Assembly (NCBI GenBank): GCA_017632775.1
Contig: JAGBQR010000021.1
Coordinates: 1 to 32,998, forward strand
Direction of reading: 5' to 3'
Length of the DNA stretch: 32,998 nt
Origin: Oscillospiraceae bacterium
Lineage (GTDB): Bacteria > Bacillota > Clostridia > Oscillospirales > Oscillospiraceae
Shown here: piece by piece, positions 3,535 to 18,008 of the stretch
How the letters are laid out: the number at the start of each line of letters is the position of its first letter
Position numbering within the stretch: the first letter of the stretch is position 1
Program-made: the position numbers and the translations under genes
The notes under the pieces: generated by a model
Told to the model about the DNA's origin: nothing
The model's input: only the letters and a program-made list of their open reading frames with translations
Database searches by the model: none

Positions 3535-4071
3535 TCAGTAGTTTTCGGCGTTGACTTCAAAATACGCCTGCGGATGCGCGCAGACAGGGCAGATTTCCGG
3601 TGCGTTCGTCCCGACGACGATATGTCCGCAGTTGCGGCATTCCCACACCTTCACCTCGCTCTTGGCGAACACTTCCGCCGCCTCTACATTCCGAAGCAGA
3701 GCACGGTAGCGTTCTTCATGATGCTTCTCGATCGCCGCGACAAGACGGAACTTCTCCGCCAGTTCAGGAAACCCTTCCTCTTCGGCTGTTCTGGCAAACC
3801 CCTCGTACATGTCGGTCCACTCGTAGTTTTCACCGGCTGCGGCAGCTTCAAGGTTTTCCGCCGTGCTTCCGATCCCGTTGAGTTCCTTGAACCACATTTT
3901 CGCATGCTCTTTCTCGTTGTCCGCTGTTTTCAGGAACAGGGCAGCGATCTGTTCAAAACCGTCCTTCTTTGCCTTCGAGGCAAAATAGGTATATTTGTTT
4001 CTGGCCTGGGACTCTCCTGCAAAGGCAGCCTCCAGGTTCTTTTCCGTTTTTGTTCCTGCGTATTTGTTCAT
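3535..4071 (-). CDS. rbr: Rubrerythrin
   Basis: A cytoplasmic, 178-residue peroxide-scavenging protein. The ferritin-like four-helix part (about 1-135) carries the diiron ligands expected of the family: E20, E53 with H56, an E81/E84 pair, and E115 with H118. The C-terminal rubredoxin-like domain has CRNC (145-148) and CPVC (161-164) for one FeS4 iron. Rubrerythrin reduces hydrogen peroxide with electrons from rubredoxin or NADH-linked donors in anaerobes. The ATG at 4071 has AAGGAG seven bases upstream. It starts 36 bases after the thioredoxin stop and is almost surely co-transcribed with it, forming an oxidative-stress pair. Confidence 0.95.
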
Positions 4072-4107
4072 CTCATTCTCCTTTCCGGCAATGTGTTTTC
4101 CGACGTG

Positions 4108-4419
4108 TCAGAGCGGAAGCAGTGCCGTGATCTGTTCTTTCGGTCTGAATCCCACGGATGTGTTCACGACCTCTCCGTCCTTCACAATAATGACTGTCGG
4201 GATGCTGGAGACCCGGAACGTGTTTGCCAGCACCGGTTCTTCATCCACATTCACTTTTCCCACTTTGATCTTTCCTTCATACTCGCTGGCGATCTCTTCG
4301 ATCACCGGTCCGAGCATGCGGCAGGGGCCGCACCAGGTTGCCCAGAAGTCCAGCAGGACCGGGATATCCGACTGCATGACTTCGCTTTCAAAATTCTGCT
4401 GTGTGATCGTATACTCCAT
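4108..4419 (-). CDS. trxA: Thioredoxin
   Basis: A 103-residue, single thioredoxin-fold protein with the classical active site WCGPC (C30, C33), buried D24 and the cis-proline loop SSIPT (P74). It reduces protein disulfides in the cytoplasm and is itself recycled by a thioredoxin reductase, which is not in this window unless the upstream flavoprotein serves another role. Length is that of ordinary bacterial TrxA. It lies 53 bases after the flavoprotein gene and 36 bases before rubrerythrin, with no clear promoter in either gap, so the three genes look like one transcript. Confidence 0.95.
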   Translation of the reverse strand: MEYTITQQNFESEVMQSDIPVLLDFWATWCGPCRMLGPVIEEIASEYEGKIKVGKVNVDEEPVLANTFRVSSIPTVIIVKDGEVVNTSVGFRPKEQITALLPL

Positions 4420-4472
4420 TGCTCTTTCCTCTCTTTCTTCGTGATTGTCCCAACGGTCTGTCGGACAAGGTT

Positions 4473-5942
4473 TCAGTCTTCAAGGCTCAGTGCGTAATCG
4501 GCCGCCCGTTCACCGGCAATGCGGCCGGTGTTCACGGCAAATCCCATCGTGTTCCCCGGGAAATAGAACATATAGGTCCCGTCGTAGATCTCATTGATGT
4601 CGCTTCCGGCGCCCCAGAGTCCCGGGATCGGATTGAACTCCGTATCCACGACCTCCTGCTTCCAGTTCACCTTGATGCCGCCCAGTGTCCCGTATCCTCC
4701 GATGCAGCCCACTGCCGCATAGAAACGTTTCCCGCGGTAAGGGAGCAGGTATTTGCGGTTTTTGCCGAAGAGTTCATCATAGTTGTCGTCGCAGGCATCG
4801 TTATACTCTTCCACGGTCTCCACAAAGTTCTCTCTGTTCATTCCGATCTTATCCGCCAGTTCCTCCAGCGAGTCCGCCGCATAATAGCAGTCCGGATAAA
4901 GCTCGGTGAGCTTCGTGAAGCGCTCGTCGAAGTTATCGATGTTGCCGCTTCCGAAAACATTGGATGAGAACGGCATGCCGTTTCTGCGGAAACGCTTGAT
5001 GATCGAGTCATCCACGATGTTATAGACCCGTTTGCCGGTCTGCTCGTCAATAATGTTCGCAGCCACCGAACTGTTCTGCATGATCGACTCGTCACAGATA
5101 CGGAATCCCTGCTTGTTCACTGTGAGGTTTGCCTGACTGAACACGCCGCGCAGTTCGATCGCTTCAGGATCGGAATCCCCGATCGGGGAAACGCCGCCGG
5201 TCGCCTCAATGGACATGCGTCCCTTCGCGCCGCCGATCTCCCATACCATCCGGATACCGTCTCCGACGATGCCGGGAACCGCGAAGTTGAAAACGTTCTT
5301 CCCGAAATCCAGGCCCGTGTACTCCCGGATCATTTCCGGATTGCAGCCGAAACCGCCCGTCGCCACAATAACGGCCTTGCAGCGGAGCTCTACCTCTTCA
5401 CCCTGGGCATTTTTTCCAAGGATCCCGCAAACTTTTCCGTCTTCTTTTATGATTCTGGTCGCCGGAGTCTCCAGAAGGAAGCGGGCTCCCAGTTCCTGTG
5501 CCCGGCGGTAGAGGATCCGGTTCATCGTGGATGCCGCCCGCGGACCGGGAATCGAGCCGTCTTCCGGCTGGACCACATGCCATGTGGCCTCTGAGTCCGG
5601 GAAATACTTCACCGCTCCGGCGAATTTGACGCCCATGTCCTCCAGCCAGTCGATGGTTTCACCGGATTTCCAGAAGTATTCATGAACAAGCCTCGCATCC
5701 GTGTGCCAGTGGACATAGTCCATGAATTTCCGGAAAACATCTTCCTTGGTAAGGTTGCTGAACGCCGCTTTCTGGATCCGGCTTTCCACGCCAAAGGGTC
5801 CCATGCCCATGTTGGCCGTTCCTCCGACGTTGTTCGCTTTTTCAAACACGACCACCGAAGCTCCCGCTTCCGAAGCGGAAACCGCAGCGCAAAGTCCTGC
5901 CGGTCCTGCCGCGATGATCCCTACATCTGCTGTCAGTTTCAT
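4473..5942 (-). CDS. FAD-dependent oxidoreductase, fumarate reductase flavoprotein type
   Basis: A 489-residue flavoprotein with an FAD_binding_2 fold: an N-terminal Rossmann segment (IIAAGPAGLCAAVSASEAG) followed by VVVFEK, a middle VIVATGGFGCNPEM loop, and a C-terminal FAD-closing region (IPGLWGAGSDINEIYDG). The family reduces or oxidises small substrates such as fumarate, enoates or steroids. There is no signal peptide, FMN-binding domain or heme site, so the electron donor is unknown and it is not a periplasmic respiratory reductase. The first glycine of the usual GxGxxG is alanine here. The ATG at 5942 is preferred over upstream starts because AAAGGAG lies nine bases before it. It heads the trxA-rbr run and has its own promoter at 6010-6038. 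Confidence 0.85.
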   Translation of the reverse strand: MKLTADVGIIAAGPAGLCAAVSASEAGASVVVFEKANNVGGTANMGMGPFGVESRIQKAAFSNLTKEDVFRKFMDYVHWHTDARLVHEYFWKSGETIDWLEDMGVKFAGAVKYFPDSEATWHVVQPEDGSIPGPRAASTMNRILYRRAQELGARFLLETPATRIIKEDGKVCGILGKNAQGEEVELRCKAVIVATGGFGCNPEMIREYTGLDFGKNVFNFAVPGIVGDGIRMVWEIGGAKGRMSIEATGGVSPIGDSDPEAIELRGVFSQANLTVNKQGFRICDESIMQNSSVAANIIDEQTGKRVYNIVDDSIIKRFRRNGMPFSSNVFGSGNIDNFDERFTKLTELYPDCYYAADSLEELADKIGMNRENFVETVEEYNDACDDNYDELFGKNRKYLLPYRGKRFYAAVGCIGGYGTLGGIKVNWKQEVVDTEFNPIPGLWGAGSDINEIYDGTYMFYFPGNTMGFAVNTGRIAGERAADYALSLED

Positions 5943-6009
5943 TGTTTTCTGCTCCTTTCTGTTTAAGCCGGCTGTCATGATCAGCTATACGATAAGGATG
6001 TTCCCATAC

Positions 6010-6038
6010 AGTATACCATTCGGCCGGGCTCCTGTCGA
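6010..6038 (-). promoter_or_regulatory. Sigma-A-type promoter for the flavoprotein-trxA-rbr run
   Basis: Read on the minus strand: -35 TCGACA (6033-6038), a 17-base spacer and -10 TATACT (6010-6015), about 67 bases before the ATG at 5942. Each box differs from consensus at one position. Confidence 0.7.
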
Positions 6039-6155
6039 TACAGCTTCGGATGATTTTCTTTCCGCTGTCCGCTTCCTGAGCTCTCTTTCCTTTTTCCCCG
6101 GCGCAAAAGAAGAGCCCTTTTTTCAGGAAAACGGGAGAAGAAACAAAAAGACCTC

Positions 6156-6184
6156 TTTACTTTAGCTCGTTAGCGTGTTATATT
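6156..6184 (+). promoter_or_regulatory. Sigma-A-type promoter for the amino-acid ABC importer
   Basis: -35 TTTACT (6156-6161), 17-base spacer, -10 TATATT (6179-6184). The binding-protein gene starts at 6222 with GGAGG just before it, so the leader is only about 30 bases and leaves no room for a riboswitch. Between this promoter and the divergent one at 6010-6038 I see no gene. Confidence 0.75.
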
Positions 6185-6221
6185 GATGAAGCAATTTTAC
6201 ACTACAAGCCGGAGGATAAAA

Positions 6222-7010
6222 ATGAAAAAAACAATCTGTCTGATTCTTGCGCTGCTTCTTGTATGCGCGCTGTGCGCCTGCGGCAAACAAGCCGCTCCGG
6301 AAGAGACCGTATTCACCATGGGGATCGATCCGGAATATCCCCCCTTCAGTTATCTGGATGACAACGGTGAATATACCGGATTTGATGTGGAGATCTGCAA
6401 GGCTGCCTGCGATTACCTTGGCTGGAAGTTCCAGATCTTCGGCGTCAACTGGGATGAGAAGCTCGTTCAGCTGGACGCGAAAGAGTGTGACTGCGTGTGG
6501 TCCGGCATGACGATCCTGGACAGCATGAAGGAAGCCGGATATGTGATCTCCGCTCCCTACTATGACAACACACAGGTCCTTCTTGTAAAAGAAGGAAGCG
6601 GTATCTCCTCATCTTCGGATCTCGCCGGGAAAGTCGTGGCCGTTCAGCTGGGCACGTCGGGTGAATCCCTGCTCAACGGGGATCTCCAGGAGCTCACCGA
6701 TACCTTCAGCGAACTGATCACCTGCGACAGTTTTCTCAAATGCTTCACCGAACTTGCCGGCAATGCGGTGGATGCCGTTTTTGTCGATCTGCCTGTCGCT
6801 GCCAGCTACTGCGCGGACAATGCGGGGTATGTGATCATCAATGAGAACCTCGGCGCCGAGCAGTACGGCATTGCTTTCCGTTCCGGTGATGCGGAACTCT
6901 GCGCCAAGATCGAAGAAGCAGTCGCCGCCCTGGTCGCCAACGGGACCTATGCGGAGATCGCCGCAAAATATCCGGACATCGTCAACAACCTGCTTTTCCT
7001 GAACAGCTGA
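6222..7010 (+). CDS. Polar amino-acid ABC transporter, substrate-binding lipoprotein
   Basis: A 262-residue extracellular binding protein of the SBP_bac_3 family. The signal peptide ends in lipobox L17-C-A-C20, so the mature protein is lipid-anchored at C20. Family marks are MGIDPEYPPFSYLD near the N-terminus, then GFDVEICKAA, and the inter-lobe stretch VVAVQLGTSGE. These proteins bind amino acids such as glutamine, histidine, arginine or cystine; the ligand cannot be told here. I start at 6222 because GGAGG lies about six bases upstream and the signal peptide begins there; an in-frame ATG at 6183 lies within the -10 box. First gene of a four-gene operon with permease, ATPase and an epimerase-like gene. 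Confidence 0.93.
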   Translation: MKKTICLILALLLVCALCACGKQAAPEETVFTMGIDPEYPPFSYLDDNGEYTGFDVEICKAACDYLGWKFQIFGVNWDEKLVQLDAKECDCVWSGMTILDSMKEAGYVISAPYYDNTQVLLVKEGSGISSSSDLAGKVVAVQLGTSGESLLNGDLQELTDTFSELITCDSFLKCFTELAGNAVDAVFVDLPVAASYCADNAGYVIINENLGAEQYGIAFRSGDAELCAKIEEAVAALVANGTYAEIAAKYPDIVNNLLFLNS

Positions 7011-7036
7011 GCCGCACTGCCTTTACTGCTTTCAAG

Positions 7037-7063
7037 CCCGAAAGCGCTTCAAGCGCTTTCGGG
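7037..7063 (+). repeat. Hairpin between binding protein and permease genes
   Basis: A ten-base-pair stem (7037-7046 with 7054-7063, loop CTTCAAG) sits in the 84-base gap after the binding-protein stop. No strong T run follows. In ABC operons such hairpins often protect the 5' part of the mRNA or cause partial termination, giving more binding protein than permease; that role is inferred. Confidence 0.6.
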
Positions 7064-7094
7064 ACTTTCCGTTTTCTGAAATGAGGTCTGCTCT

Positions 7095-7742
7095 ATGTCA
7101 CTGTGGGCAATGGTCGTGAAAATGAGCGAAGGGCTTGGAAAGACCTGCGCGATCTTTTTCCTGACGCTCCTGTTTTCCCTTCCGCTCGGAATGATCGTGG
7201 CGCTTCTCCGCATGAGCAAAAACAAGGCGGTTTCCGGCGTTACACGTTTCTGCATCTCGGTCCTGCGCGGGACGCCGCTGATGCTTCAGCTTCTGGCGGT
7301 AACATACGGTCCCTACTATCTTTTCGGAATGAATGTCTCCCGCAACAAACTGATCCCCGTCATCATCGCTTTTTCCATCAATTACGCAGCCTATTTTGCG
7401 GAGATCTACCGCGGCGGGATCGAATCCATCCCGGCAGGGCAGTACGAAGCCGCAGAAGTCCTGGGTTATTCGCGCTTCCAGACTTTCATGCGCATCATCC
7501 TTCCTCAGGTCGTAAAGCGGATCATGCCAAGCGTTACGAACGAAGTCGTTACGCTGGTCAAGGATACGTCCCTCGCCTTCACGGTCTCGTATCAGGAGAT
7601 GTTCACAATCGGGAAACAGATCGCCAACTCACAGACGAGTTTCATGCCGTTCCTTGTCGCCGGCGTTTTCTATGATGTTTTCAACGCCATCGTGGACTGG
7701 GCGATGGGCCGGATCGAAAAGAAGCTCGATTATTACAGATAG
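7095..7742 (+). CDS. Polar amino-acid ABC transporter, permease (HisM/GlnP family)
   Basis: A 215-residue membrane subunit with about five hydrophobic helices. The SVLRGTPLMLQL segment (about 55-66) and the EAA loop, EAAEVLGYSRFQTFMRI then ILPQ (about 118-137), identify the His/Glu/Gln/Arg/opine permease family; the EAA loop docks on the ATPase. Only one permease gene is present, so the transporter is probably a homodimer of this subunit. GAGGT lies seven bases before the ATG. It is 12 bases from the ATPase start. Confidence 0.93.
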   Translation: MSLWAMVVKMSEGLGKTCAIFFLTLLFSLPLGMIVALLRMSKNKAVSGVTRFCISVLRGTPLMLQLLAVTYGPYYLFGMNVSRNKLIPVIIAFSINYAAYFAEIYRGGIESIPAGQYEAAEVLGYSRFQTFMRIILPQVVKRIMPSVTNEVVTLVKDTSLAFTVSYQEMFTIGKQIANSQTSFMPFLVAGVFYDVFNAIVDWAMGRIEKKLDYYR

Positions 7743-7754
7743 GAGGGACCCGCC

Positions 7755-8537
7755 ATGCATGAAGAAAACCGTTCCGGACCGATGCCGGGCAGTCCCCCTG
7801 TACTGGCACTTCAGAATATCCGGAAGTCGTTCGGAGACCTGTCCGTTCTCCGGGATATCTCTCTTGCCGTAGATCAAGGCAATGTCGTATCTGTCATAGG
7901 TCCTTCCGGATCCGGAAAGTCGACTCTCCTGCGCTGCGCCACCTTCCTGGAGAGCGCGGATGCGGGGAACATCCTCTATGACGGCCAGTATGCGATGCGC
8001 GACGGCCTTTACGGGGGAAAAAAAGAACTCCGGGAATTCCGGAGACGTTTTGGTCTCGTATTCCAGAATTTCAATCTCTTCCCGCACTACTCCGTGATGA
8101 AGAACATCACCGAAGCCCCGGTTCTGCGCGGTTTCAGCCGCGCGGAAGCGGAGGAAAAGGCCTTTTCCCTTCTGAAAAAGATGGGCCTGGAGGGAAAGGA
8201 GAACGCTTATCCCTGTCAGCTTTCGGGCGGTCAGCAGCAGCGGGTCGCCATTGCGAGAGCCCTTGCCATGGAACCGGAGATCCTGTTCTTCGATGAGCCG
8301 ACTTCCGCACTGGATCCGGAACTGACCGGTGAAGTGCTGAAAGTCATCCGTCAGCTGGCAGAAGAGAACATGACCATGGTCATCGTCACACATGAGATGG
8401 CCTTCGCTCGTGCTGTTTCCGAATGGGTCGTCTTCATGGACGGAGGCGTTATTATTGAGGAGGGTCCTCCCGAGTCGGTCCTCGGAGATCCGTCTCAGGA
8501 AAGGACTCGCCAGTTTCTGCGCAATTATCAGCAATGA
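7755..8537 (+). CDS. Polar amino-acid ABC transporter, ATP-binding protein (GlnQ/HisP family)
   Basis: A 260-residue cytoplasmic ATPase. Walker A is GPSGSGKST (49-57), the Q-loop VFQNFNLFP (about 102-110), the signature LSGGQ (156-160), Walker B ILFFDEP (176-182) and the H-loop histidine H213. It powers uptake through the permease just upstream. A short non-conserved N-terminal extension (about 15 residues) precedes the core; the ATG at 7755 has GGAGG nine bases upstream, so it is kept. Its stop codon overlaps the start of the next gene (ATGA at 8534-8537), so the epimerase-like protein is translationally coupled to it. Confidence 0.95.
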   Translation: MHEENRSGPMPGSPPVLALQNIRKSFGDLSVLRDISLAVDQGNVVSVIGPSGSGKSTLLRCATFLESADAGNILYDGQYAMRDGLYGGKKELREFRRRFGLVFQNFNLFPHYSVMKNITEAPVLRGFSRAEAEEKAFSLLKKMGLEGKENAYPCQLSGGQQQRVAIARALAMEPEILFFDEPTSALDPELTGEVLKVIRQLAEENMTMVIVTHEMAFARAVSEWVVFMDGGVIIEEGPPESVLGDPSQERTRQFLRNYQQ

Positions 8538-9346
8538 CTTCTGAAATGACTCTTGTATACTGGTACGCAGATCCGACCGGGAACATCACTCTGCTGGTCG
8601 AAGGTTCCTATGCTCCTGAACAACATGCGGCGATCGCCGGACTTCTTCTCGCCGCAGAGCCCCGCGCTGAACAGGTCGGTTTTCTTACCTCCGTTTCCAG
8701 TGACAAGGTTTCTCTCCGCATGGCGGGGGATGAATTCTGCGGAAACGCCGCTCTTTCTTCCGCGGCAGTTTCCCTGGAGGCTTCCGGCGCTTTCTCCGGA
8801 ACACTGACGGTGGATGTTTTCGGTTTGTCCGGATCCCTGCGGGCAGATCTCTGCAGGAGCAGCGGTCACTGTTATTCGGGCTGCATCGAGATGCCCTCCC
8901 CGCTGGAAATCTCCGAACAGGTCTTCTCCCTGTCCGGACAGGATCATCTTTTCCCTGTCGTCCGCTTCCCGGGGATCTGTCATATCCTCTGTACCCGTCC
9001 TCTTGATAAGGCTTCTGCAGAGGAATCGATCCGCAGCTGGTGCCATGCTCTGGATGCCCCCGCCCTTGGGATCATGCAGCTCGATCTGCAGGCAGGCCGT
9101 CTTCTGCCGCTGGTCTATGTCCAGGCAGTCGATACGCTCTATTGGGAGAGTTCCTGTGCCAGCGGCACCTGCGCCGCCGTCAGCTGGCTCTCCGCAAAAA
9201 GCGGAGGGGATGCTTCTTTCCGCTTCTCCGAACCCGGCGGGACGCTCGGAGCCCGGATCGAACAAGGACGCCTGTATCTCTCCGGGACGGTCGCACTGGA
9301 AAAGAAAACTCTTTCGATCCCCGCAGAAAGAAAAAAACCGCTCTGA
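8534..9346 (+). CDS. Diaminopimelate-epimerase-fold protein, candidate amino-acid epimerase
   Basis: A 270-residue protein of the DapF/PhzF fold. The two catalytic-type cysteines of PLP-independent racemases are both in place: C69 in DEFCGNAALS and C208 in ESSCASGTCAA. The sequence is too different from DapF for lysine biosynthesis and looks closer to divergent members such as the CntK histidine epimerase of staphylopine synthesis. Its start overlaps the ATPase stop, so it is made with the amino-acid importer. The simplest inference is that it inverts the alpha carbon of the imported amino acid, allowing use of a D-amino acid or supplying one. No CntL- or CntM-like partner follows. The stop codon lies inside the terminator stem. 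A non-catalytic role or an isomerase of another substrate is possible. Confidence 0.8.
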   Translation: MTSEMTLVYWYADPTGNITLLVEGSYAPEQHAAIAGLLLAAEPRAEQVGFLTSVSSDKVSLRMAGDEFCGNAALSSAAVSLEASGAFSGTLTVDVFGLSGSLRADLCRSSGHCYSGCIEMPSPLEISEQVFSLSGQDHLFPVVRFPGICHILCTRPLDKASAEESIRSWCHALDAPALGIMQLDLQAGRLLPLVYVQAVDTLYWESSCASGTCAAVSWLSAKSGGDASFRFSEPGGTLGARIEQGRLYLSGTVALEKKTLSIPAERKKPL

Positions 9347-9367
9347 CAGGTTCAGAGCGGTTTTTTT
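9331..9367. terminator. Bidirectional intrinsic terminator overlapping a stop codon
   Basis: Stem 9331-9346 with 9352-9367 (16 base pairs, loop CAGGT) ends in seven T on the plus strand and seven A on the left arm. It can stop both the ABC-importer operon and the convergent DUF1015 gene (stop at 9380). The epimerase-like stop codon TGA (9344-9346) is the top of the left arm. Confidence 0.92.
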
Positions 9368-9379
9368 CTTTCATCCGCA

Positions 9380-10603
9380 TCAGCGGATCCTTCTGTATTC
9401 CAGATAATAGCGCTTGTCCCTGGCACTGCCGATGGAGAAACTCTTCCGCGGAAAAATCATGCCCTTCCGGACCACGGAAAAAAGATCCTCTCTTCTCACT
9501 TCCGGAAGGAGGAGAAATGCCGCCTGCCTCTCGCTCCCGATCGTCCGCGCGGCCCCTTCGCCGTGGATATAATCTTCCGTTCCTCCGTACAGCCGCGCAT
9601 AGTCCTCCATCAGACCGTCCGCCGCCGATACGATCTCTCCGGTCGACAATCCGGATACCGTTATCCTTTTTTCTCCTTCCGATGTACCGGCAACCACAGT
9701 CCTCTCGCCGCCGTTTTTTGACCGTCTCCGGAAGTATTCCGCCGCATGAACGGCGAATTCCCGGCTGTCCGTCCCCAGCAGAACGCGATGGATCGGTTCG
9801 ATCTCAACGCCTTCATCATAGACATTCACCAGTTCCACCAGGGCATATCTGGCAGGATGCGTCTCTCTTTCCTGTGCTGAAAGAGACATCTTCATCTGAT
9901 CCCAGCAGAGTTTCGCCGTTGCAAGGGAGTGATTCCCGTCGCCGGCAGCCAGAACGGTCTTCCGGTTTCCCGTCAGTTCCTCAAACGCCCTTTCCAGTTT
10001 TTCAGCAGCAGAATCCCGGAGAGATCTTCCCCGGATCCATCCGCCTCCCAGCATCAGTTCAAAGGAATACTCTTCCTGCATCTCTGCCTGAAGCCTGTTC
10101 AGCTCCGCATCGATCCGATGCTCCGGATCATCAAAAAATACCAGTGTATGCGGCGCTTCAAGGCTGGCCTTTTCCCGCAGCTCGAGCCGCTTGACCAGTC
10201 TTTCTTCCACTGTCTGCTCCGTCGCTTTGATCGCTGCCGGGACATCCGGCCGGAAATCATACGCCTCCAGATCCACCGCAGCCACGATGCCCCGACGGAT
10301 CTTTCCGTCCTGCATCTGTCGCTCGACCGCGATCATGGCGTTTCTGCGCTCCCTGAAGATCCCCTCGCGCTGATAGCGGAGCATCCGTTCAGCGATCCTG
10401 TCTGCCGCCCCTTCCGCCTCTTTTCTTCCGATCCACGCCTCCGGAAGGATCATGTGCAGGGAAGACGGACAGTCTCCAACGATCCTGCAGGTCTCCCTCC
10501 AGTATTCCCGGTCCGAGGTGAACTGATCGCAGGCGATCACACTCCATTTTTCCATCTCGACAGCATCCGGGAGAAGAATGTCCGCCGCTTTGATGATTCC
10601 CAT
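9380..10603 (-). CDS. DUF1015 family protein
   Basis: A 407-residue cytoplasmic protein. The N-terminal AADILLPD and CDQFTSDREYW, and the central GDGNHSLATAK block, match DUF1015, in which a (D/G)DG-N/H-H-S/R motif is the most conserved part. The family is often found near serine or phosphoglycerate metabolism genes in Firmicutes, but its activity is not established and no function is claimed. The ATG at 10603 is chosen: the frame runs further upstream, but the conserved region starts here and a GGAG lies upstream. It has its own promoter at 10637-10665 and ends at the shared terminator. Confidence 0.8.
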   Translation of the reverse strand: MGIIKAADILLPDAVEMEKWSVIACDQFTSDREYWRETCRIVGDCPSSLHMILPEAWIGRKEAEGAADRIAERMLRYQREGIFRERRNAMIAVERQMQDGKIRRGIVAAVDLEAYDFRPDVPAAIKATEQTVEERLVKRLELREKASLEAPHTLVFFDDPEHRIDAELNRLQAEMQEEYSFELMLGGGWIRGRSLRDSAAEKLERAFEELTGNRKTVLAAGDGNHSLATAKLCWDQMKMSLSAQERETHPARYALVELVNVYDEGVEIEPIHRVLLGTDSREFAVHAAEYFRRRSKNGGERTVVAGTSEGEKRITVSGLSTGEIVSAADGLMEDYARLYGGTEDYIHGEGAARTIGSERQAAFLLLPEVRREDLFSVVRKGMIFPRKSFSIGSARDKRYYLEYRRIR

Positions 10604-10636
10604 CCTTTTGCTCCGTTCCTTTTCTTTTTCCGTGCT

Positions 10637-10665
10637 ATTATACACGCTGTCCGCCCGGGCGGCAA
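10637..10665 (-). promoter_or_regulatory. Sigma-A-type promoter for the DUF1015 gene
   Basis: Minus strand: -35 TTGCCG (10660-10665), 17-base spacer, perfect -10 TATAAT (10637-10642), 33 bases before the ATG at 10603. Confidence 0.72.
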
Positions 10666-10715
10666 CCGAAGAAACACTCTGCGGTCAACGCCCCTCTTTT
10701 TTCCGGTCAGCATTC

Positions 10716-10742
10716 AGCCGCCGCAGACGAAGTGCGGCGGCT
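10716..10742. repeat. Strong hairpin at the 3' end of the arc-CGD operon
   Basis: A perfect ten-base-pair GC-rich stem (10716-10725 with 10733-10742, loop GACGAAG) lies 20 bases after the last operon stop. On the minus strand, where the operon runs, a run of A precedes it and no U run follows. On the plus strand a run of six T does follow (10744-10749). It is a likely 3' boundary element, but its U tract faces the opposite transcript. Confidence 0.65.
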
Positions 10743-10762
10743 GTTTTTTCAGGATCGACTGC

Positions 10763-11773
10763 TCAGTATTTGTCCCAGTAGCGGTCAAGCATGGCGATAT
10801 GCCGGCGGATCTGTTCCGAATCCGAGCTCTCCGTATCAAAGCCCTCGTATTCCGAAGCGATATATCCGCTGTAGTTTTCTTCCTTCATGATCCGCACGAA
10901 GTTTTCGTAATCGATGCCCGGACAGTTGCAGTCTTTGTCCATGTAATAGAATTTTCCGTGCATGTATCTGGAATACTTGAGAAGCCTGCGGAAGCCCTCA
11001 TAATCCGGATGCGTACGCCAGTACGGCGTGCCGAACTTGGCGGTGTCCGGATCGATCGAGAAGAGCAGTTTCCTTGCCGCGTATTCATCCGCCGCATCTC
11101 CGCCTTCCGCATAGATCATCCGGATGAGCTCCTCTTCCGGGATCTCGGTCGTGGCATAGAGGTGATTGATCCTGTACAGAAGCTCCTTATGGACCGCATC
11201 GTCGGGCAGCGGCGCCAGAACATTGCCGGGAGCGCCGGAGGCAAACGCGGAATAGTCCATCACGATCCCGAGGTATTCCGAGTTTTTCCTTTCAAACAGG
11301 TCATAGTATTCCTGGAAGATCGGAGTGGACGGGCAATAAGGTCCGTGCAGCTCGATGGCGAGGTGGATGCCGAGTTCTTCTGCATAGGGCAGCATTTTTT
11401 CCATTGTAACGGGAAGAAGCGCGTCCTGGCTCCGGACTACTTTGAATCCCATCCGTTTGGCATATTCCATGCTGGCGACCGTATCGGTCATGCGTTCCGC
11501 CTCGTGCGTGAATCTTCCCCTGTGCTTGCCGCTGTCGACATAGATGCTGTAGCAGACCGGGTCCAGTTCATAACGGGCACAGGCATCCCTGAAATACCCG
11601 ATCCATTCGTCCGACGGATTCGGGTGGCCCGGCACCATCTGCGGAGCAACGATCTCAATCCCGTCACAGCCGATATCCTTTGCCTTCTGCAGGATATCTT
11701 CCAGTTCGGCGTCACCGTGCACATAAGACATGCCGAATCCGTACAGCGTGATCCCGTGTTTCAGTCTGCTCAT
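10763..11773 (-). CDS. Sugar phosphate isomerase/epimerase-fold protein, candidate C-glycoside deglycosidase alpha subunit
   Basis: A 336-residue TIM barrel of the xylose-isomerase-like/AP-endonuclease-2 superfamily. Candidate divalent-metal ligands are E141 (AIELHGP), D173 (VMDYS), H204 (RINHLY) and E308 (IASEYEG). The conserved YMHGKFYYM segment carries H272, a residue type used as a general base in this fold. The next gene upstream, one base away (TGATATG), encodes a DUF6379 protein, and this alpha/beta pair is the arrangement of C-glycoside deglycosidases (DfgAB, DgpBC, CarBC types), which break the C-C bond of 3-oxo-C-glycosides. I chose ATG 11773 (GAGGAGGAAT upstream) over a TTG at 11788. 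An ordinary sugar or inositol isomerase remains possible. Last gene of the operon. Confidence 0.78.
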   Translation of the reverse strand: MSRLKHGITLYGFGMSYVHGDAELEDILQKAKDIGCDGIEIVAPQMVPGHPNPSDEWIGYFRDACARYELDPVCYSIYVDSGKHRGRFTHEAERMTDTVASMEYAKRMGFKVVRSQDALLPVTMEKMLPYAEELGIHLAIELHGPYCPSTPIFQEYYDLFERKNSEYLGIVMDYSAFASGAPGNVLAPLPDDAVHKELLYRINHLYATTEIPEEELIRMIYAEGGDAADEYAARKLLFSIDPDTAKFGTPYWRTHPDYEGFRRLLKYSRYMHGKFYYMDKDCNCPGIDYENFVRIMKEENYSGYIASEYEGFDTESSDSEQIRRHIAMLDRYWDKY

Positions 11774-11774
11774 A

Positions 11775-12287
11775 TCATTCCTCCTCAATCATGCAGACCA
11801 GAGTCTGCTTTCCGACTTCCGGATGCTGGAATTCCAGTGCCCGGGTTCTGTAGCCTTCCACATCGCTTCCTTCACCGTAAGAATGGCCGAAATCGTTCCT
11901 CTTGCTGATCTCGATCTCCAGCGTGTGTTCGCCGGGTTTCAGACCGCCGACCTTGTTCACTACGACCCAGCATTCATCCTTGGCCGCCCAGAATATATCC
12001 GTGTTGTTCCCGGTCTCATCCACCTGACACGCAAAATCCCGCAGTTTGATGCTCATATCACAGTGCGGAACTTCTTCCCCGTCCATTTTGAGGCGGATGT
12101 TTTCCAGTGTGGAGATCCATACTCCGCGATAACTCAGGTTGTTCAGCCGGAAACGGTAACCCGTCCTGCATCCGCAGATGATCTTGTTCTCCAGAGATCC
12201 AGGCCGGACCAGTTCTGAGCCCATAAATCCGCCGAAACTCAATGCGGCGTCGATTGCGGCGATCTTCTCTTCAACGGTTTTTGCCAT
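11775..12287 (-). CDS. DUF6379 protein, candidate C-glycoside deglycosidase beta subunit
   Basis: A 170-residue, mostly beta-strand protein without signal peptide or membrane segment. The features FRLNNLSYRGVWISTLENI, KMDGEEVP, the aromatic DECWVVVNKVGGL and the closing KPGEHTLEIEI fit DUF6379, the beta subunit of C-glycoside deglycosidases. In known heterodimers this jelly-roll subunit helps shape the active site of the TIM-barrel alpha subunit. The ATG at 12287 has AGGGAGGAAG before it. Its stop is separated by a single base from the alpha gene start, fitting equal production of two subunits. It begins 40 bases after arcC with no promoter seen. Family assignment is from recognised pattern, not from a search. 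Confidence 0.72.
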   Translation of the reverse strand: MAKTVEEKIAAIDAALSFGGFMGSELVRPGSLENKIICGCRTGYRFRLNNLSYRGVWISTLENIRLKMDGEEVPHCDMSIKLRDFACQVDETGNNTDIFWAAKDECWVVVNKVGGLKPGEHTLEIEISKRNDFGHSYGEGSDVEGYRTRALEFQHPEVGKQTLVCMIEEE

Positions 12288-12327: not shown

Positions 12328-13281
12328 TTATTTTCTGTTTTCCTGTCCGACGATCCGGGTCCCCTCTTTCCCGCGCAGCGCTGCGCAGGCCTTTTCAAGA
12401 GAGGTAATCACCGCGTACCGCTCCGGTGCGGAAGTCGCGAAACGTATGGCGGCCTCCATTTTCGGAAGCATGCTTCCCGGAGCGAAATGTCCTTCCCGCA
12501 GATACCGTTCCGCCTCCGCTGTGCGAAGCGTTTCCAGCGCTTTCTGCTCCGGTTTCCCGAAAGACAGATACACGCGGTCCACCGCCGTAAGGATCATCAG
12601 TATATCCGCGCTGATGTCCTCCGCCAGTTTTTCACTTGCGCGGTCTTTGTCGATCACAGCATCGACGCCTTTCAGCCCTTCTGCCGTCCGGATGACGGGG
12701 ATCCCGCCCCCGCCGACCGTGATCACCACGATCCCTGCCTCCAGCATACGGCGGATCCCCTCAAGTTCCATGATCTCTGCCGGAGCCGGGGACGGAACGA
12801 CCCTGCGGTAGCCGCGGCCCGCATCTTCCATATAGATCCAGCCCTTTTCCTTTTCCATCCGGGCGGCTTCTTCCGCCGTGCAGAAATCTCCGATCGGTTT
12901 TTCCGGGTGTGAGAAGGCCGGATCGGAAGGCTCTACCCTGACCTGCGTTACAAGGCTGACGACCGGATCACGAAGCCCGCGGCGGTGCAGTTCCTCCTGG
13001 AGCGCTCTCTGCAGATGGAACCCGATATAGCCCTGGGACATTGCCGTACACTCGGGAAAAGGCATCCGAAAAGGCGCTCTTGCGTTTTTCCCCGCATCGT
13101 TGAGCGCCTGATGGATCATCCCCACCTGCGGTCCGTTCCCGTGACCGATGATCAGCTCGTGTCCCTCCGCCCGAAGTTCAGCGATCGCCCGGGCAGCAGC
13201 GGAAACAGCTTTTTCCTGTTCCTCCGGCGTGTTTCCCAGGGCGTTTCCGCCCAGTGCAACGACGATCCGTTTCTTCTCCAT
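12328..13281 (-). CDS. arcC: Carbamate kinase
   Basis: A 317-residue amino-acid-kinase-fold enzyme that makes ATP and carbamate from carbamoyl phosphate and ADP, the energy-yielding last step of the arginine deiminase pathway. GGNALG (11-16), GHGNGPQVG (46-54) and VVITVGGGGIPVI mark the family; length is normal (about 310). The ATG at 13281 is one base after the arcB stop, so translation is coupled. An in-frame ATG at 13299 lies within the end of arcB, adds six residues not seen in the family, and neither has a strong ribosome site. Confidence 0.95.
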   Translation of the reverse strand: MEKKRIVVALGGNALGNTPEEQEKAVSAAARAIAELRAEGHELIIGHGNGPQVGMIHQALNDAGKNARAPFRMPFPECTAMSQGYIGFHLQRALQEELHRRGLRDPVVSLVTQVRVEPSDPAFSHPEKPIGDFCTAEEAARMEKEKGWIYMEDAGRGYRRVVPSPAPAEIMELEGIRRMLEAGIVVITVGGGGIPVIRTAEGLKGVDAVIDKDRASEKLAEDISADILMILTAVDRVYLSFGKPEQKALETLRTAEAERYLREGHFAPGSMLPKMEAAIRFATSAPERYAVITSLEKACAALRGKEGTRIVGQENRK

Positions 13282-13282
13282 T

Positions 13283-14275
13283 TCAGCAGAGCGTTGCATA
13301 GATCACCGCTTTGATGGTATGCATCCTGTTTTCCGCTTCATCGAACACGACAGACTGTCCGGATTCGAACACTTCATCCGTCACTTCCATTTCCGGCAGA
13401 CCGAAGCGTTCCGCAATATCCGTGCCGATCGTCGTACGCGTGTCATGAAAAGAAGGGAGGCAATGCATAAAGACCGCGGAAGGTTTTGCCTTCTTCATCA
13501 GCGTGCTGTTTACCTGATAGGGCTTCAGCAGTCCGATCCGTTTTTCCCAGACCTCGTCCGGCTCCCCCATCGAGACCCAGATATCGGTGTAGATCACATC
13601 CGCATCGGCAGCTCCTTCCTCCGGATCCTCCGTCAGACGGATCGTACTCCCGCTCGCTTCTGCGATCTTTTCCGCCTTTTCCACAAGCTCCGGTGCCGGG
13701 AACAGTTCTTTCGGCGCGCAGGCGGTGAAGTGCAGGCCCATTTTGGCGCAGGCAACCAGAAGCGAGTTCCCCATATTGTTCCGTGCATCCCCCATATAGG
13801 TGAAATTCAGGCCTTTCAGACATCCGAACTTCTCCTCCATCGTCAGCAGGTCTGCCAGCATCTGCGTGGGATGGAACTGATCCGTAAGACCGTTCCACAC
13901 CGGCACTCCGGAGTACGCGGCCAGTTCCTCCACCAGTTTCTGGCTGAATCCGCGGTATTCGATACCGTCATACATTCTCCCCAGGACCCTCGCCGTATCG
14001 GGGATGCTTTCCTTCTTTCCCATCTGAGAACTACCCGGATCCAGATAGGTCACGCCCAGGCCCAGATCATGTCCCGCCACTTCAAAGGCACAGCGCGTCC
14101 GCGTGGAGGTTTTTTCAAAAAGAAGGACGATGTTCTTTCCTTCGAGATACCGATGCGGGACACCGCAGCGCTTCATGTTCTTGAATTCCTTCGCCATGTC
14201 CAGCAGGTACCGGATCTCCTGCGGCGTATAATCCAGCAGCGTCAGGAAACTTCTTCCCCGGATGTTCACTCCCAT
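13283..14275 (-). CDS. arcB: Ornithine carbamoyltransferase, catabolic
   Basis: A 330-residue enzyme that splits citrulline with phosphate into ornithine and carbamoyl phosphate. The carbamoyl-phosphate loop STRTR (57-61), the FHPTQ block (134-138), DIWVSMGE for the amino-acid side and HCLPSFHDT near the C-terminus are all intact. The sequence alone does not separate catabolic ArcB from anabolic ArgF; the call rests on its place between arcA and arcC. The ATG at 14275 has AAAGGAG seven bases before it; an upstream ATG at 14296 overlaps that site. It lies 21 bases after the LOR/SDH-type gene. Confidence 0.95.
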
Positions 14276-14296: not shown

Positions 14297-15418
14297 TCAG
14301 GGTTTTTCCCTGTTTTCTTTTTTCTTCCCGAGTCCCTCGGCCACGATCCGGATAAAGTCCTGCACATTCGTCACCATCGTGGTCGCGGAAAGACTTCCCC
14401 TGTCCAGAAGCTTGTTTACCACAAACTCGTCCGCATCCACTGCATAGAGGAACACAGGCCTCACGCTTCCGTCCGCAAGCATCCGGAAGGAGGGGGTCAT
14501 ATTCCCGGCTGCAATGGTATGCAGCATCGTTGCCAGACAGATGACCGTCGTGGCGTTCTTCAGCATCGCCCGCATGGCATCCTGCGCCTGGTAGACATCC
14601 CCGATCACCTCCGGAAGCGGTCCGTCATCCCGGATCGATCCGGCAAGCACGAACGGCACTTCCTGTTTCACGCAGGCGCAGAGGATCCCGTCACCCAGAC
14701 CATACTCCCGGATGAACGCCGGGATCGATCCGCATCGGCGGACCCGGTTGCAGATGTCCAGATGGTTGTAATGCCCGTTCGGCACCGACTGCTGCGTATA
14801 GATGTCCTGACCGAGCGCCGTATGGAGCAGGGCTCCCTCAAGATCATGGGTCGCGAGGGCATTCCCGGCGAGCAGGCCATGGCAGTACCCCTGCTCCACC
14901 AGGGAGGCCATGCAGTTCCGGGCACCGGCATCAAAGGCAAACGCCGGGCCCATGACCCACACCACATTCCCGTGTTCTTTTTCGTACTCGAGCAGATCGA
15001 TCAGCCGGTCATAATCTCTGCCGTAGGAAGTCTCTCTGCTGCGGCCCTGGCGGAAAATGAACTGGTCCTCCGGTTTCTGATCCTCCGGCCCGGAAAAACC
15101 GCCGCTGTGCAGCCAGATCCCTTCCTCGGCCCGTTCCGTACGGCCCAGAATGACCTTCTCTCCCTTCCGGAGATTCCGGTTCTCCACGACATCCAGCCGC
15201 CCGTTTTCCCGCAGGACGACGCTGGAATCCATGCGGCTCTCCTCCGCAAGGACCCATTTCCCATCGATCTTGAAATACTCGGGATACATGGAGGTACTGT
15301 GAAACCCTTCGGGTGCCACTCCGTCCGCAGGCGCCGGGGCGACACGCACATCCGGTGCCTCCGTGAAGCATGGCTGTGAAAAATCCGGCTGCTGATAAAT
15401 CGGTAATCTGAAGCTCAT
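14297..15418 (-). CDS. LOR/SDH-type protein (TIGR00300, AgrE C-terminal-like), candidate ornithine cyclodeaminase
   Basis: A 373-residue cytoplasmic protein. An N-terminal region is followed by an NAD-binding-like core: VVWVMGPAFAFDAGA (about 152-166), GLLAGNALATHDLEGAL (181-197) and LAGSIRDDGPLPEVIGD (258-274). These match the conserved C-terminal half of the cyanobacterial arginine-catabolic enzyme AgrE and archaeal TIGR00300 proteins, where this half converts ornithine to proline and ammonia. The N-terminal arginine dihydrolase half of AgrE is absent, but arcA, a relative of that half, is the adjacent gene. The operon thus seems to encode as separate proteins what AgrE fuses, while also keeping arcB and arcC. 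AAGGAG precedes the ATG at 15418. The activity is inferred; lysine 2-oxoglutarate reductase-like dehydrogenation is the main alternative. Confidence 0.78.
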   Translation of the reverse strand: MSFRLPIYQQPDFSQPCFTEAPDVRVAPAPADGVAPEGFHSTSMYPEYFKIDGKWVLAEESRMDSSVVLRENGRLDVVENRNLRKGEKVILGRTERAEEGIWLHSGGFSGPEDQKPEDQFIFRQGRSRETSYGRDYDRLIDLLEYEKEHGNVVWVMGPAFAFDAGARNCMASLVEQGYCHGLLAGNALATHDLEGALLHTALGQDIYTQQSVPNGHYNHLDICNRVRRCGSIPAFIREYGLGDGILCACVKQEVPFVLAGSIRDDGPLPEVIGDVYQAQDAMRAMLKNATTVICLATMLHTIAAGNMTPSFRMLADGSVRPVFLYAVDADEFVVNKLLDRGSLSATTMVTNVQDFIRIVAEGLGKKKENREKP

Positions 15419-15460: not shown

Positions 15461-16696
15461 TCATGATCCCGGCGCTTCCCGGACAAGCGGCATGCTCATG
15501 CAGCGCGGGCCTCCGCGTCCTCTTGCCAGTTCAGAGCTCGGCATTTCATATACCTCCACTCCGCTGTCCCGCAGGATCTCGTTCGTCACATAATTCCGGT
15601 TGTATACGACGACCTTTCCCGGAGCGATGCACAGCGTGTTGGCGCCGTCATTCCACTGTTCCCGCGCCGAAGCGATGATATCCTTCCCTCCGCATCGGAT
15701 CAGCGTCACCCTGTCAAGTCCGAGCGCATCCCGCAGAACATCTTCCAGACTCTCCGTCCGCTCCCTGGCGCGGATACGCTCCCCTCCGCATCCCTGGCAG
15801 ATCTCATAGATACGCAGAGACCGCAGGATCTCCGGATGGATGGAGAACTTGTCCCGGTCGACCTGTGTGAACACCGTGTCCAGGTGCATAAAAGCCCGGA
15901 AATTCGGGATGTCCATCACAAGGATCTTCTTTACAGAAGAGGTCTCCTCCCGGAAAAGATTTGCCGCAAGGCGTTCGATCCCTTCGGGAGACGTGCGCTG
16001 CGAGACGCCGATGGCAAGGACCTCGTGACTGAGATTGAGGATGTCTCCCCCCTCGATCGAAAACGGACAGCTCCGGTCATAGTACAGCGGGACCTTTCCG
16101 GAGAAATCCGGGTGATATTTCAGAATGAACTGTCCATAGATCGTTTCTCTGCACCGGGTCGGCGAATACATCCGGTGCAGGCTGACCCCGCAACCGATCG
16201 ACGCGAAGGGGTCCCTTGTAAAATACAGGTTCGGTATGGGGTCCAGCACGAACTGCCGGGTCCCGCTGGTGAGCCGGACAAGCGGGCCTTCGGTCAGGCG
16301 GCCCCGCAGTTCGTCGGCGGTCACGCCGCTCATCGTCTTCAGAATGAGTTCCTTCTCGTCCGTGATCTCCGAGAGGACTGCGGACAGCTCCTCCATATGG
16401 CTGTTCGCGACAGGCCCCGCCTCTGCGAGGAACTGCCGGATGAAAATCTCCTTCAGTCCGGGATTCACCTGCAGCGTTTCCGCCATGAGGTCCTCCAGAT
16501 AGACGACTTCCGCTCCGTTCTCTCTCAGGATACCGGCAAACCTGTCGTGCTCGTTCCGGGCGAGGGCCAGATAGGGGATGTCATCGAACAGGAGCCTCTC
16601 CAGTTCCTGCGGGACCAGATGCTCCAGTTCTTTTCCCGGACGGTGCAGCAGGACTCTTTTCAGCGGCCCGATCTCACTGTTTACACAGATCGCCAT
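15461..16696 (-). CDS. arcA: Arginine deiminase
   Basis: A 411-residue enzyme that hydrolyses arginine to citrulline and ammonia in the cytoplasm. The guanidine-modifying-enzyme catalytic set is present: D162 in FTRDPF, E215 in IEGGDI, H271 in MHLDT and nucleophile C399 in RGGPRCMSMP. Length is typical. I chose the ATG at 16696, where AAAGGAG sits eight bases upstream and the family N-terminus begins; a frame extension to 16729 would overlap the amylase-family gene. It starts 13 bases after that gene's stop. With arcB and arcC it forms the full pathway giving one ATP per arginine; no arcD antiporter is in the operon. Confidence 0.97.
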   Translation of the reverse strand: MAICVNSEIGPLKRVLLHRPGKELEHLVPQELERLLFDDIPYLALARNEHDRFAGILRENGAEVVYLEDLMAETLQVNPGLKEIFIRQFLAEAGPVANSHMEELSAVLSEITDEKELILKTMSGVTADELRGRLTEGPLVRLTSGTRQFVLDPIPNLYFTRDPFASIGCGVSLHRMYSPTRCRETIYGQFILKYHPDFSGKVPLYYDRSCPFSIEGGDILNLSHEVLAIGVSQRTSPEGIERLAANLFREETSSVKKILVMDIPNFRAFMHLDTVFTQVDRDKFSIHPEILRSLRIYEICQGCGGERIRARERTESLEDVLRDALGLDRVTLIRCGGKDIIASAREQWNDGANTLCIAPGKVVVYNRNYVTNEILRDSGVEVYEMPSSELARGRGGPRCMSMPLVREAPGS

Positions 16697-16709
16697 ACTC
16701 CGGACTCCT

Positions 16710-18008
16710 TTATCCTTCTGATTTCTCATCTGTACGGAACAGCATCGGACGGCCGTCGCAGCGGACAGATCCGTCTGTGACTTCTGCCGCCTTTCCGTCG
16801 ATCAGGTTCCGGTAGATCCCGTCCGGGACCTCCACTTTTACGACAGCGCTTTCCGAACGCAGAGAAAAGATACCGATCGTTTTCCTTCCGTGAAAGTTCC
16901 TCTCCATCACGGCGATCTGATGCGCATCGTCCGCGGAGGCGGTGAAGCTGTCCTCCGGAGTGAAGACCGTTTTCTTGATCTCCGCGAGCTTCTGCAGGTA
17001 CGGACTGATGTCTTTCCCGTCCCGCCGGATGACTTCGCGTTCAAAGAGGCTCGGTTTATGCGTACTGGAGAATTCCTGTCCCGCATACAGGAGTGTCGTG
17101 CCTTTCAGGAAATACAGCATCGCCGTATAGTTTTCCAGGTCGCTGTCTGTGCGTACCCGGCCGCGGATACGCGGCTGGTCATGGTTCTCGAGGTAACGGA
17201 GCTTGTTGTAGTTCTCCGGATAGACCGCCTCCTGAAAATCCAGCAGTTCCGTCCACGCGCTGAGCTGCGCTTCTCCCCGCAGGAAACGCTCGAAGCACTC
17301 CCAGATGTCATACTGGTACTCGATATCGAAGGCTTCATACGCCTCCGAGTCCCGTGAGGAGTAGAATCCGCTGCTCCTGGCGTAATTCCCGAAGGCGAGA
17401 TGCACGGTCTCAGCAAGCCAGATACAGCCGGGTTTCACTTTTGACACTGCCTCCCGGGCCGCTTTCCAGAACTCCACCGGTACGAATGACGCCACATCAC
17501 AGCGGAATCCGTCCACGATCTGCGCCCACATGCACAGGCTCTCGATCTGATAGGTCCAGAGAGCTCTGCAGCTGTAATCGAGATCGATCACATCCGCCCA
17601 GTCTCCGATCTTGTTCCCCGTGCGGCCTTCCGCGTCCCGGTAGTAAAACTCCGGGTGCTCCTGCAGGAGCACAGCGTCCGGGGAGGTGTGGTTATATACC
17701 ACGTCGATCATCACTTTCATTCCCCGGGCATGGATCTCCTCCGCCAGCGTCCGGAAATCCTCCATGCTTCCGTAGAGCGGATTCGTGCTGCGGTAATCCC
17801 GGTTGGCATACGGGCAGCCGAGGCTTCCTTTTTTCTCCTTTATCCCGATCGGGTGGATCGGAAGGAACCAGATGATATCTGTTCCGAGCGCGCGGATGCG
17901 GTCCAGGTCTCCGATCATGGAGAGGAATGTCCCTTCCTCCGTGTGGTCCCGGACGAAAACCGAATAGATGATCTGATTCTGAAGACTTCTGTCCGTGTCT
18001 TTTGCCAT
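16710..18008 (-). CDS. Alpha-amylase family (GH13) glycosidase, intracellular
   Basis: A 432-residue GH13 enzyme without signal peptide. The four conserved regions are visible: DVVYNH (102-107), GFRCDVAS with nucleophile D171, LAETV with acid/base E200, and ENHDQP with transition-state D277. The enzyme acts on alpha-glucans or oligosaccharides; the sub-type (alpha-amylase, oligo-glucosidase, maltogenic) is not clear. A short C-terminal beta domain is present, and no N-terminal CBM34/48 domain. AAAGGAG lies just before the ATG at 18008. It is the first gene after a strong promoter and ends 13 bases before arcA, an unexpected partner for an arginine deiminase operon. Confidence 0.9.
   Translation of the reverse strand: MAKDTDRSLQNQIIYSVFVRDHTEEGTFLSMIGDLDRIRALGTDIIWFLPIHPIGIKEKKGSLGCPYANRDYRSTNPLYGSMEDFRTLAEEIHARGMKVMIDVVYNHTSPDAVLLQEHPEFYYRDAEGRTGNKIGDWADVIDLDYSCRALWTYQIESLCMWAQIVDGFRCDVASFVPVEFWKAAREAVSKVKPGCIWLAETVHLAFGNYARSSGFYSSRDSEAYEAFDIEYQYDIWECFERFLRGEAQLSAWTELLDFQEAVYPENYNKLRYLENHDQPRIRGRVRTDSDLENYTAMLYFLKGTTLLYAGQEFSSTHKPSLFEREVIRRDGKDISPYLQKLAEIKKTVFTPEDSFTASADDAHQIAVMERNFHGRKTIGIFSLRSESAVVKVEVPDGIYRNLIDGKAAEVTDGSVRCDGRPMLFRTDEKSEG

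What the first reader, a model, noticed from the sequence alone, without database searches (positions are those of the whole stretch)
10763..12287. Candidate C-glycoside deglycosidase pair at the end of an arginine deiminase operon
A DUF6379 gene is followed, one base later, by a TIM-barrel gene with the expected E/D/H/E metal set. Established knowledge: such pairs (DfgAB, DgpBC, CarBC) cleave C-C bonds of C-glycosides, but only after an oxidoreductase makes the 3-oxo sugar. No Gfo/Idh/MocA or GMC oxidoreductase is in this operon. The pair may act on an oxidised sugar made elsewhere, or on a different 3-oxo substrate. Its link to arginine catabolism is, to my knowledge, not described.
Basis: partly seen in the sequence, partly recalled or inferred. 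Interest (0 to 1): 0.72.

Follow-up and report, generated by a model that had tools for sequence, protein, structure and literature searches.

The report
C-glycoside deglycosidase pair beside arginine operon
Two genes at the end of an arginine-breakdown operon encode a known type of enzyme that splits sugars off plant compounds after the sugar has been oxidised; the enzyme looks genuine, but its place next to the arginine genes was not seen in its relatives and is most likely accidental.

Summary
11775-12287(-) is a PF19906 C-glycoside deglycosidase beta subunit. One base later, 10763-11773(-) encodes an alpha subunit matching the PuCGD (DgpC) chain over its whole length (6e-54), with all seven catalytic residues. 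It falls in a five-row clade inside the DgpC group, apart from three isomerase-like proteins. In L043 (alpha 69%, beta 55% identical) the pair is followed by a gene whose best solved relative is the 3-oxidase DgpA (6e-166). So this is most likely a DgpBC-type 3-oxo-glycoside eliminase.

The arginine link is not supported as biology. The pair follows arcC in 1 of 5 loci. G051 (97% complete) has the closest pair (alpha 85%) but no arginine deiminase match. Of 102 genus genomes, 3 have the alpha orthologue, 26 the deiminase, one both. A DgpA-type oxidase is encoded elsewhere, on contig C21. Separately located dgpA and dgpBC genes are already published for Catenibacillus (PMC11170127). New member of a known kind; substrate unknown.

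The parts
11775..12287 (-). CGD beta subunit (PF19906, CGDB), 170 aa; Tyr53 corresponds to Tyr39-beta of PuCGE
10763..11773 (-). CGD alpha subunit (AP_endonuc_2 TIM barrel, DgpC-like), 336 aa; catalytic set E141 H143 D173 H272 K274 E308 E310
12328..13281 (-). carbamate kinase (arcC), last gene of the ADI operon, 40 bases before the beta gene; neighbour, not part of the enzyme
   Evidence: TIGR00746, 370.1 bits, cut-off 358.25
13283..14275 (-). ornithine carbamoyltransferase; neighbour
14297..15418 (-). putative nickel-pincer-nucleotide-dependent ornithine cyclodeaminase variant; neighbour
   Evidence: NF052526, 606.7 bits, cut-off 440
15461..16729 (-). arginine deiminase (arcA); neighbour
   Evidence: TIGR01078, 502 bits, cut-off 489.1
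9380..10645 (-). DUF1015 protein, next gene downstream of the pair; also next to the pair in G051 (L046)

Best explanation
The pair is a DgpBC-type, metal-dependent 3-oxo-glycoside beta-eliminase. Alpha binds the metal (probably Mn2+). His143 removes the C2 proton of a 3-oxo-glucoside and assists loss of the aglycone, giving the aglycone and a 2-hydroxy-3-keto-glucal. Beta completes the active site and holds the aglycone, with Tyr53 in the place of the Tyr39-beta that PuCGE needs for C-glycosides. The 3-oxo substrate is made in trans by a Gfo/Idh/MocA dehydrogenase, most likely the DgpA-type enzyme on contig C21 of the same genome. The position after arcC is a lineage-specific juxtaposition that may place the pair under read-through from the arginine deiminase operon; arginine is not part of its chemistry. 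Shown: family, residues, clade, operons of relatives, lack of linkage in the relatives examined. Inferred: catalysis, partner oxidase, transcription. Unknown: the natural aglycone and whether the bond is C-C or C-O.
For: Beta PF19906 1.7e-22. Alpha to 7bvr_A 6e-54; the same chain sequence is entry 7EXZ, PuCGD. The eight best alpha hits (6e-54 to 1.4e-21) are all from entries in which the beta query also finds a partner chain or fused domain; the next hit, a putative sugar isomerase, is at 7e-4. Seven of seven catalytic residues. Tree: five-row clade (100/100) inside an 18-row clade with 7bvr (100/99), three isomerase-like rows apart (98/99, on long branches). L043 has beta, alpha, then a Gfo/Idh/MocA protein whose best PDB hit is DgpA 7xr9, 6.3e-166. 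L044 has an AP_endonuc_2 gene, beta, alpha and two Gfo/Idh/MocA genes, the second 73% identical to the L043 one. The own C21 protein is 48% identical to both and hits DgpA1 and DgpA at 5e-109 and 6e-101. Published chemistry: PMC8563793 sections 7, 11-13 and PMC10628242 passages. Separate dgpA and dgpBC: PMC11170127.
Against: No activity test exists. The beta match to DgpB is modest (1.2e-9). PuCGE Tyr303 corresponds to Phe312 here and Asn144 to Gly144, so the aglycone side differs from the puerarin enzyme (counted along the alignment; roles). G051, with the closest pair and 97% complete, has no DgpA-type gene: its best match to the L043 one is 32%, so the partner is not the same in every genome. 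The C21 oxidase lies directly beside a fused CGD, which may be its real partner. In G051 and G013 no Gfo/Idh/MocA gene was found beside the pair either (17 of 21 and 9 of 11 predicted genes covered, the pair included).
Confidence: 0.85

Rival explanations
1. The pair is functionally part of the arginine operon: it processes a sugar-linked arginine, citrulline or ornithine compound (for example an oxidised glycosylamine), so that the operon feeds on glycated arginine.
For: Same strand, 40 bases after arcC; the promoter scan found no minus-strand site between arcC and beta (4 sites in the whole region against 4.6 expected by chance, so the scan is weak). That 3-oxo chemistry could release N-linked leaving groups is inference.
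Against: Directly after arcC in 1 of 5 pair loci. G051 and G013 have the pair but no ADI match (G013 is only 71% complete). Of 102 genus genomes 26 have ADI and 3 the alpha orthologue, with one overlap. I read 8 of the 25 other ADI loci: none has a CGD after it in the 7 with enough sequence; the eighth, L099, ends 418 bases after ADI. Two relatives carry Gfo/Idh/MocA genes with the pair instead.
Confidence: 0.04
2. The pair is an O-glycoside (or S-, N-glycoside) 3-oxo-eliminase rather than a C-glycoside enzyme; the family name over-states C-C cleavage.
For: PuCGE cleaves 3-keto O- and C-glucosides (PMC10628242, abstract and passages). The alpha partner of the oxyanion tyrosine pair, Tyr303, is Phe here and falls in a gap in G051.
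Against: Tyr39-beta, whose Phe mutant lost over 99% of C-glycoside cleavage, is conserved as Tyr53; but it is invariant in 16 of 16 aligned rows and so does not discriminate. The EuCGD chain 7bvs also lacks a Tyr at the Tyr303 place in the alignment.
Confidence: 0.4
3. The junction between carbamate kinase and the pair is a misassembly of the metagenome bin, so the pair is not next to the ADI operon at all.
For: Window 3535-12287 is largely collinear with G051 contig C14, while window 19967-22998 matches G051 contig C21. GC steps from 0.54-0.55 up to the pair to 0.57-0.58 from 12328 on.
Against: ADI operon proteins are 57-88% identical to those of genus relatives, so they fit this genus. A true rearrangement would look the same, and the GC step is small. 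Read coverage is not available.
Confidence: 0.12

Closest known systems
DgpBC (PuCGD/PuCGE) with DgpA, intestinal strain PUE
   Same: Alpha TIM barrel and PF19906 beta, same catalytic residues, full-length alpha similarity (6e-54; beta 1.2e-9); the L043 relative has a DgpA-type gene directly after the pair.
   Different: No oxidase in the window operon. Beta has extra residues at both ends and alpha a longer stretch around residues 220-250, seen in the five rows of the clade (one other beta row, L061, also has a shorter N-terminal extension). Tyr303 and Asn144 of PuCGE are not kept.
Catenibacillus scindens / C. decagia dispersed dgpA and dgpBC genes (PMC11170127)
   Same: Several dgpBC clusters per genome with dgpA genes located separately (abstract and passages seen).
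EuCGD (DfgAB; 7EXB, same chain as 7bvs) and AgCGD2 (7DNM)
   Same: Same metal and base residues in 7bvs; both are found by alpha and by the beta profile.
   Different: More distant in sequence (alpha 8e-28 and 1.4e-21); 7bvs lies outside the clade of window alpha and DgpC (my label there, DfgC, is wrong: the paper calls this subunit DfgA). 7dnm was not in the tree.
AtOGE O-glycoside eliminase (PMC10628242)
   Same: Same type of Mn2+ beta-elimination of a 3-keto glucoside (passages).
   Different: The paper's abstract calls it unrelated in sequence to the C-glycoside enzyme and specific for the O-glycoside; I did not compare the sequences.

Membership tests
C-glycoside deglycosidase (DgpBC/CGD) | small beta subunit of PF19906 | tested here: met
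   1.7e-22, 79.8 bits, cut-off 27.6; a profile of 16 betas including the window finds eight PDB sequences, seven CGD or DUF6379 betas and the fused chain 8qrz
C-glycoside deglycosidase (DgpBC/CGD) | alpha subunit homologous to DgpC over full length | tested here: met
   7bvr_A 6e-54, residues 2-334 of 335; chain identified as PuCGD through 7EXZ
C-glycoside deglycosidase (DgpBC/CGD) | metal and base residues E147 H149 D179 H269 K271 E305 E307 (AgCGD2 numbering) | tested here: met
   7 of 7 present
C-glycoside deglycosidase (DgpBC/CGD) | Tyr39-beta needed for C-C cleavage | tested here: met
   Tyr53 of beta aligns
C-glycoside deglycosidase (DgpBC/CGD) | alpha/beta heteromer with shared active site | not testable with these tools
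   structure prediction switched off
C-glycoside deglycosidase (DgpBC/CGD) | 3-oxidase partner | tested here: inconclusive
   absent from the contig; DgpA-type gene on contig C21; pairing not shown
C-glycoside deglycosidase (DgpBC/CGD) | cleavage of a 3-oxo C-glycoside | not testable with these tools
   needs an enzyme assay
Inositol or sugar-phosphate isomerase (IolI-like) | alpha groups with isomerases | tested here: not met
   IolI 1i60 E 0.48; three isomerase-like rows apart in the tree, on long branches
Component of the arginine deiminase operon | conserved linkage with ADI genes | tested here: not met
   1 of 5 pair loci; 0 of 7 readable ADI loci of relatives, 8 of 25 having been read

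The most novel reading that the evidence does not exclude
The five-member clade, with an extended beta subunit and an enlarged alpha region around residues 220-250, acts on a class of 3-oxo glycosides not yet tested with any CGD; in this genome the pair has been captured by the arginine deiminase operon, so that glycoside cleavage is switched on by arginine supply.
Probability: 0.15. Interest if true: 0.45.

Novelty: new member of a known kind. Interest (0 to 1): 0.22.

Why it matters
It adds a distinct, apparently untested clade to a small enzyme family that cleaves otherwise inert C-glycosides of dietary and medicinal plants. The genome carries nine PF19906 matches although only about 65% complete; 18 of 400 genomes of its family, itself included, have any (17 over the cut-off), and two others have 11 each. 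Such genomes may be specialists in oxidise-then-eliminate glycoside use, as already suggested for Catenibacillus (PMC11170127). The arginine link itself does not matter unless it is seen again.

Tried and rejected
Arginine link: tested on five pair loci, ADI presence in 102 genus genomes, and eight of the 25 other ADI loci; rejected as a conserved association.

Isomerase reading of alpha: rejected by PDB ranking, residues and tree. In the tree the row own_C38fus was cut wrongly by me: that protein is beta-first, so its last four residue columns read as gaps and its place should be ignored. The label DfgC for 7bvs is mine and wrong (DfgA in PMC8563793). The isomerase-like rows have long branches, and the program warns that their joins may be false.

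GMC oxidase in the genome: no match to PF00732, in an assembly of about 65% completeness. Other kinds of 3-oxidase were not searched for.

Gene calling: the first script chose wrong-frame ORFs and its lists were not used; crashed; one search used a codon-usage scorer trained on this genome, so start sites in other loci are approximate.

Promoters: the site upstream of the G051 pair is one of 2 found against 0.9 expected by chance (sd 0.9), so it is weak evidence.

Reach: the genome-contig scan gave only 3 loci, one of them (L045) only 36% identical, so conservation outside the genus rests on L043 and L044. The family scan used a cut-off of 1e-40 and found no further close orthologue.

Papers: no paper in the library holds DUF6379; 5 hold arginine deiminase with C-glycoside, and from titles and abstract starts none concerns this pairing. 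The library holds open-licence papers only. Searches, for a broad-specificity 3-keto glycan pathway that I recalled, did not list that paper itself.

Full report
What is there. On the minus strand, 11775-12287 encodes a 170-residue protein that matches PF19906 (C-glycoside deglycosidase beta subunit) at 1.7e-22, well over the curated cut-off. One base after its stop codon starts a 336-residue protein, 10763-11773, a PF01261 TIM barrel. Against solved structures, alpha matches 7bvr_A at 6e-54 over its whole length; that chain sequence is also entry 7EXZ, the PuCGD of PMC8563793 (DgpBC of strain PUE). The eight best alpha hits all come from entries in which beta also finds a chain or domain; the next, a putative sugar isomerase, is at 7e-4 and IolI at 0.48. 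Beta matches DgpB at 1.2e-9. A profile of 16 betas, the window's included, finds eight PDB sequences at 8e-47 to 5e-14, seven CGD or DUF6379 betas and the fused chain 8qrz.

Catalytic residues. PMC8563793 (sections 7 and 11-13 read) names the metal ligands and the base of AgCGD2. All seven positions are kept: E141, H143, D173, H272, K274, E308, E310 (numbered with Met). In a 31-row tree, window alpha falls in a five-row clade (100/100) with G051, L043, G013 and L044, within an 18-row clade that holds 7bvr (100/99); three isomerase-like proteins lie apart (98/99), though on long branches. In beta, Tyr53 corresponds to Tyr39-beta of PuCGE, whose Phe mutant lost over 99% of C-glycoside activity but only 2.4-fold of its O-glycoside activity (PMC10628242, passages). 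It is invariant in 16 of 16 aligned betas, so it supports function but not specificity. Counting along the alignment, PuCGE Tyr303 is Phe312 here and Asn144 is Gly144, so the aglycone side is not that of the puerarin enzyme.

What the relatives say. In L043 (alpha 69%, beta 55% identical) the order is beta, alpha, then two Gfo/Idh/MocA genes; the first has DgpA as its best solved relative, 6.3e-166. In L044 (alpha 59%) an AP_endonuc_2 protein precedes beta and alpha, and two Gfo/Idh/MocA genes follow, the second 73% identical to the first of L043. This resembles the published order of oxidation, elimination, hydration and reduction (PMC10628242, passages). In G051 (alpha 85%, beta 76%) the pair keeps the downstream DUF1015 neighbour but has a different upstream region, with a promoter-like TTGCAA-17-TATAAT (weak, 2 sites against 0.9 expected). 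In G013 (alpha 62%) it lies between a sulfatase gene and a LysR/enolase-type cluster. No Gfo/Idh/MocA gene was found beside the pair in G051 (17 of 21 predicted genes of L046 covered, the pair included) or in G013 (9 of 11 of L047).

The arginine operon. The four genes upstream are arginine deiminase, a nickel-pincer-nucleotide-type ornithine cyclodeaminase variant, ornithine carbamoyltransferase and carbamate kinase. The gap to beta is 40 bases and the scan listed no promoter-like site in it, so read-through is likely; that is inference. Homology between the window and G051 upstream of beta ends about 15 bases before the start codon. G051 (97% complete) and G013 (71%) have no match to the arginine deiminase. 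Of 102 genus genomes, 3 have the alpha orthologue at 1e-70 and 26 the deiminase at 1e-30, with only this genome in both. Eight of the 25 other deiminase loci were read: none is followed by a CGD in the seven with enough sequence, the eighth ending 418 bases after the gene. The linkage was thus seen only in this assembly, by rearrangement or possibly by misassembly: the two sides of the junction match different contigs of G051 and GC steps from 0.54-0.55 to 0.57-0.58 there.

Where the oxidase is. The genome (1.17 Mb, 42 contigs, 65% complete) holds four Gfo/Idh/MocA matches, three directly beside other CGD genes on contigs C21, C3 and C7 and a fourth about 2.5 kb from one on C3, and no match to the GMC family. 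The C21 protein is DgpA-like: best PDB hits DgpA1 and DgpA, 5e-109 and 6e-101, and 48% identical to the partner genes of L043 and L044. It is the best candidate to supply the 3-oxo substrate, with the reservation that it sits beside a fused CGD of its own and that G051 has no equivalent (best 32%). Separately located dgpA and dgpBC genes are already reported for Catenibacillus (PMC11170127, abstract and passages), and dispersed DfgAB genes for CAKRHR01 sp934339005 (PMC12101588, passages). A pair without its own oxidase is thus not new.

Verdict. A genuine CGD pair by every sequence test I could run, a new member of a known kind in a clade for which I found no solved or tested member; the arginine association is not supported. 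The substrate, and whether it is a C- or an O-glycoside, remains open.

Noticed in passing
G000 contigs C3, C7, C8, C21, C24, C38 (L048-L052 and window): Nine PF19906 matches in a 65% complete genome; relatives G013 and G051 have 8 and 4; 18 of 400 family genomes have any, two of them 11.
   Followed up: partly
L048:16632-18101, L050:5764-7224, L052:8770-10182: CGD alpha and beta fused in one protein, in both orders within one genome: alpha-beta on C3 and C21, beta-alpha on C38; the solved chain 8qrz matches as beta then alpha.
   Followed up: partly
L048:14997-16040(-): A CGD alpha paralogue with Asp where the catalytic His should be; possibly a changed activity.
   Followed up: no
window 14297-15418(-): Putative nickel-pincer-nucleotide-dependent ornithine cyclodeaminase variant inside the ADI operon (NF052526, 606.7 bits, cut-off 440); an arginine-to-proline route is my inference.
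   Followed up: no
window 4473-5855(-): FAD-binding protein whose best NCBIfam hit is vinyl phenol reductase, 262.6 bits but far under the cut-off of 600.
   Followed up: no
window 10715-10743(+): Hairpin of 11 pairs followed by a T run on the + strand, between the pair and DUF1015, antisense to both.
   Followed up: no
L051:8476-11609(+): Two CGD beta-alpha pairs in tandem with no Gfo/Idh/MocA gene on that contig, followed by a DUF2804 gene.
   Followed up: no
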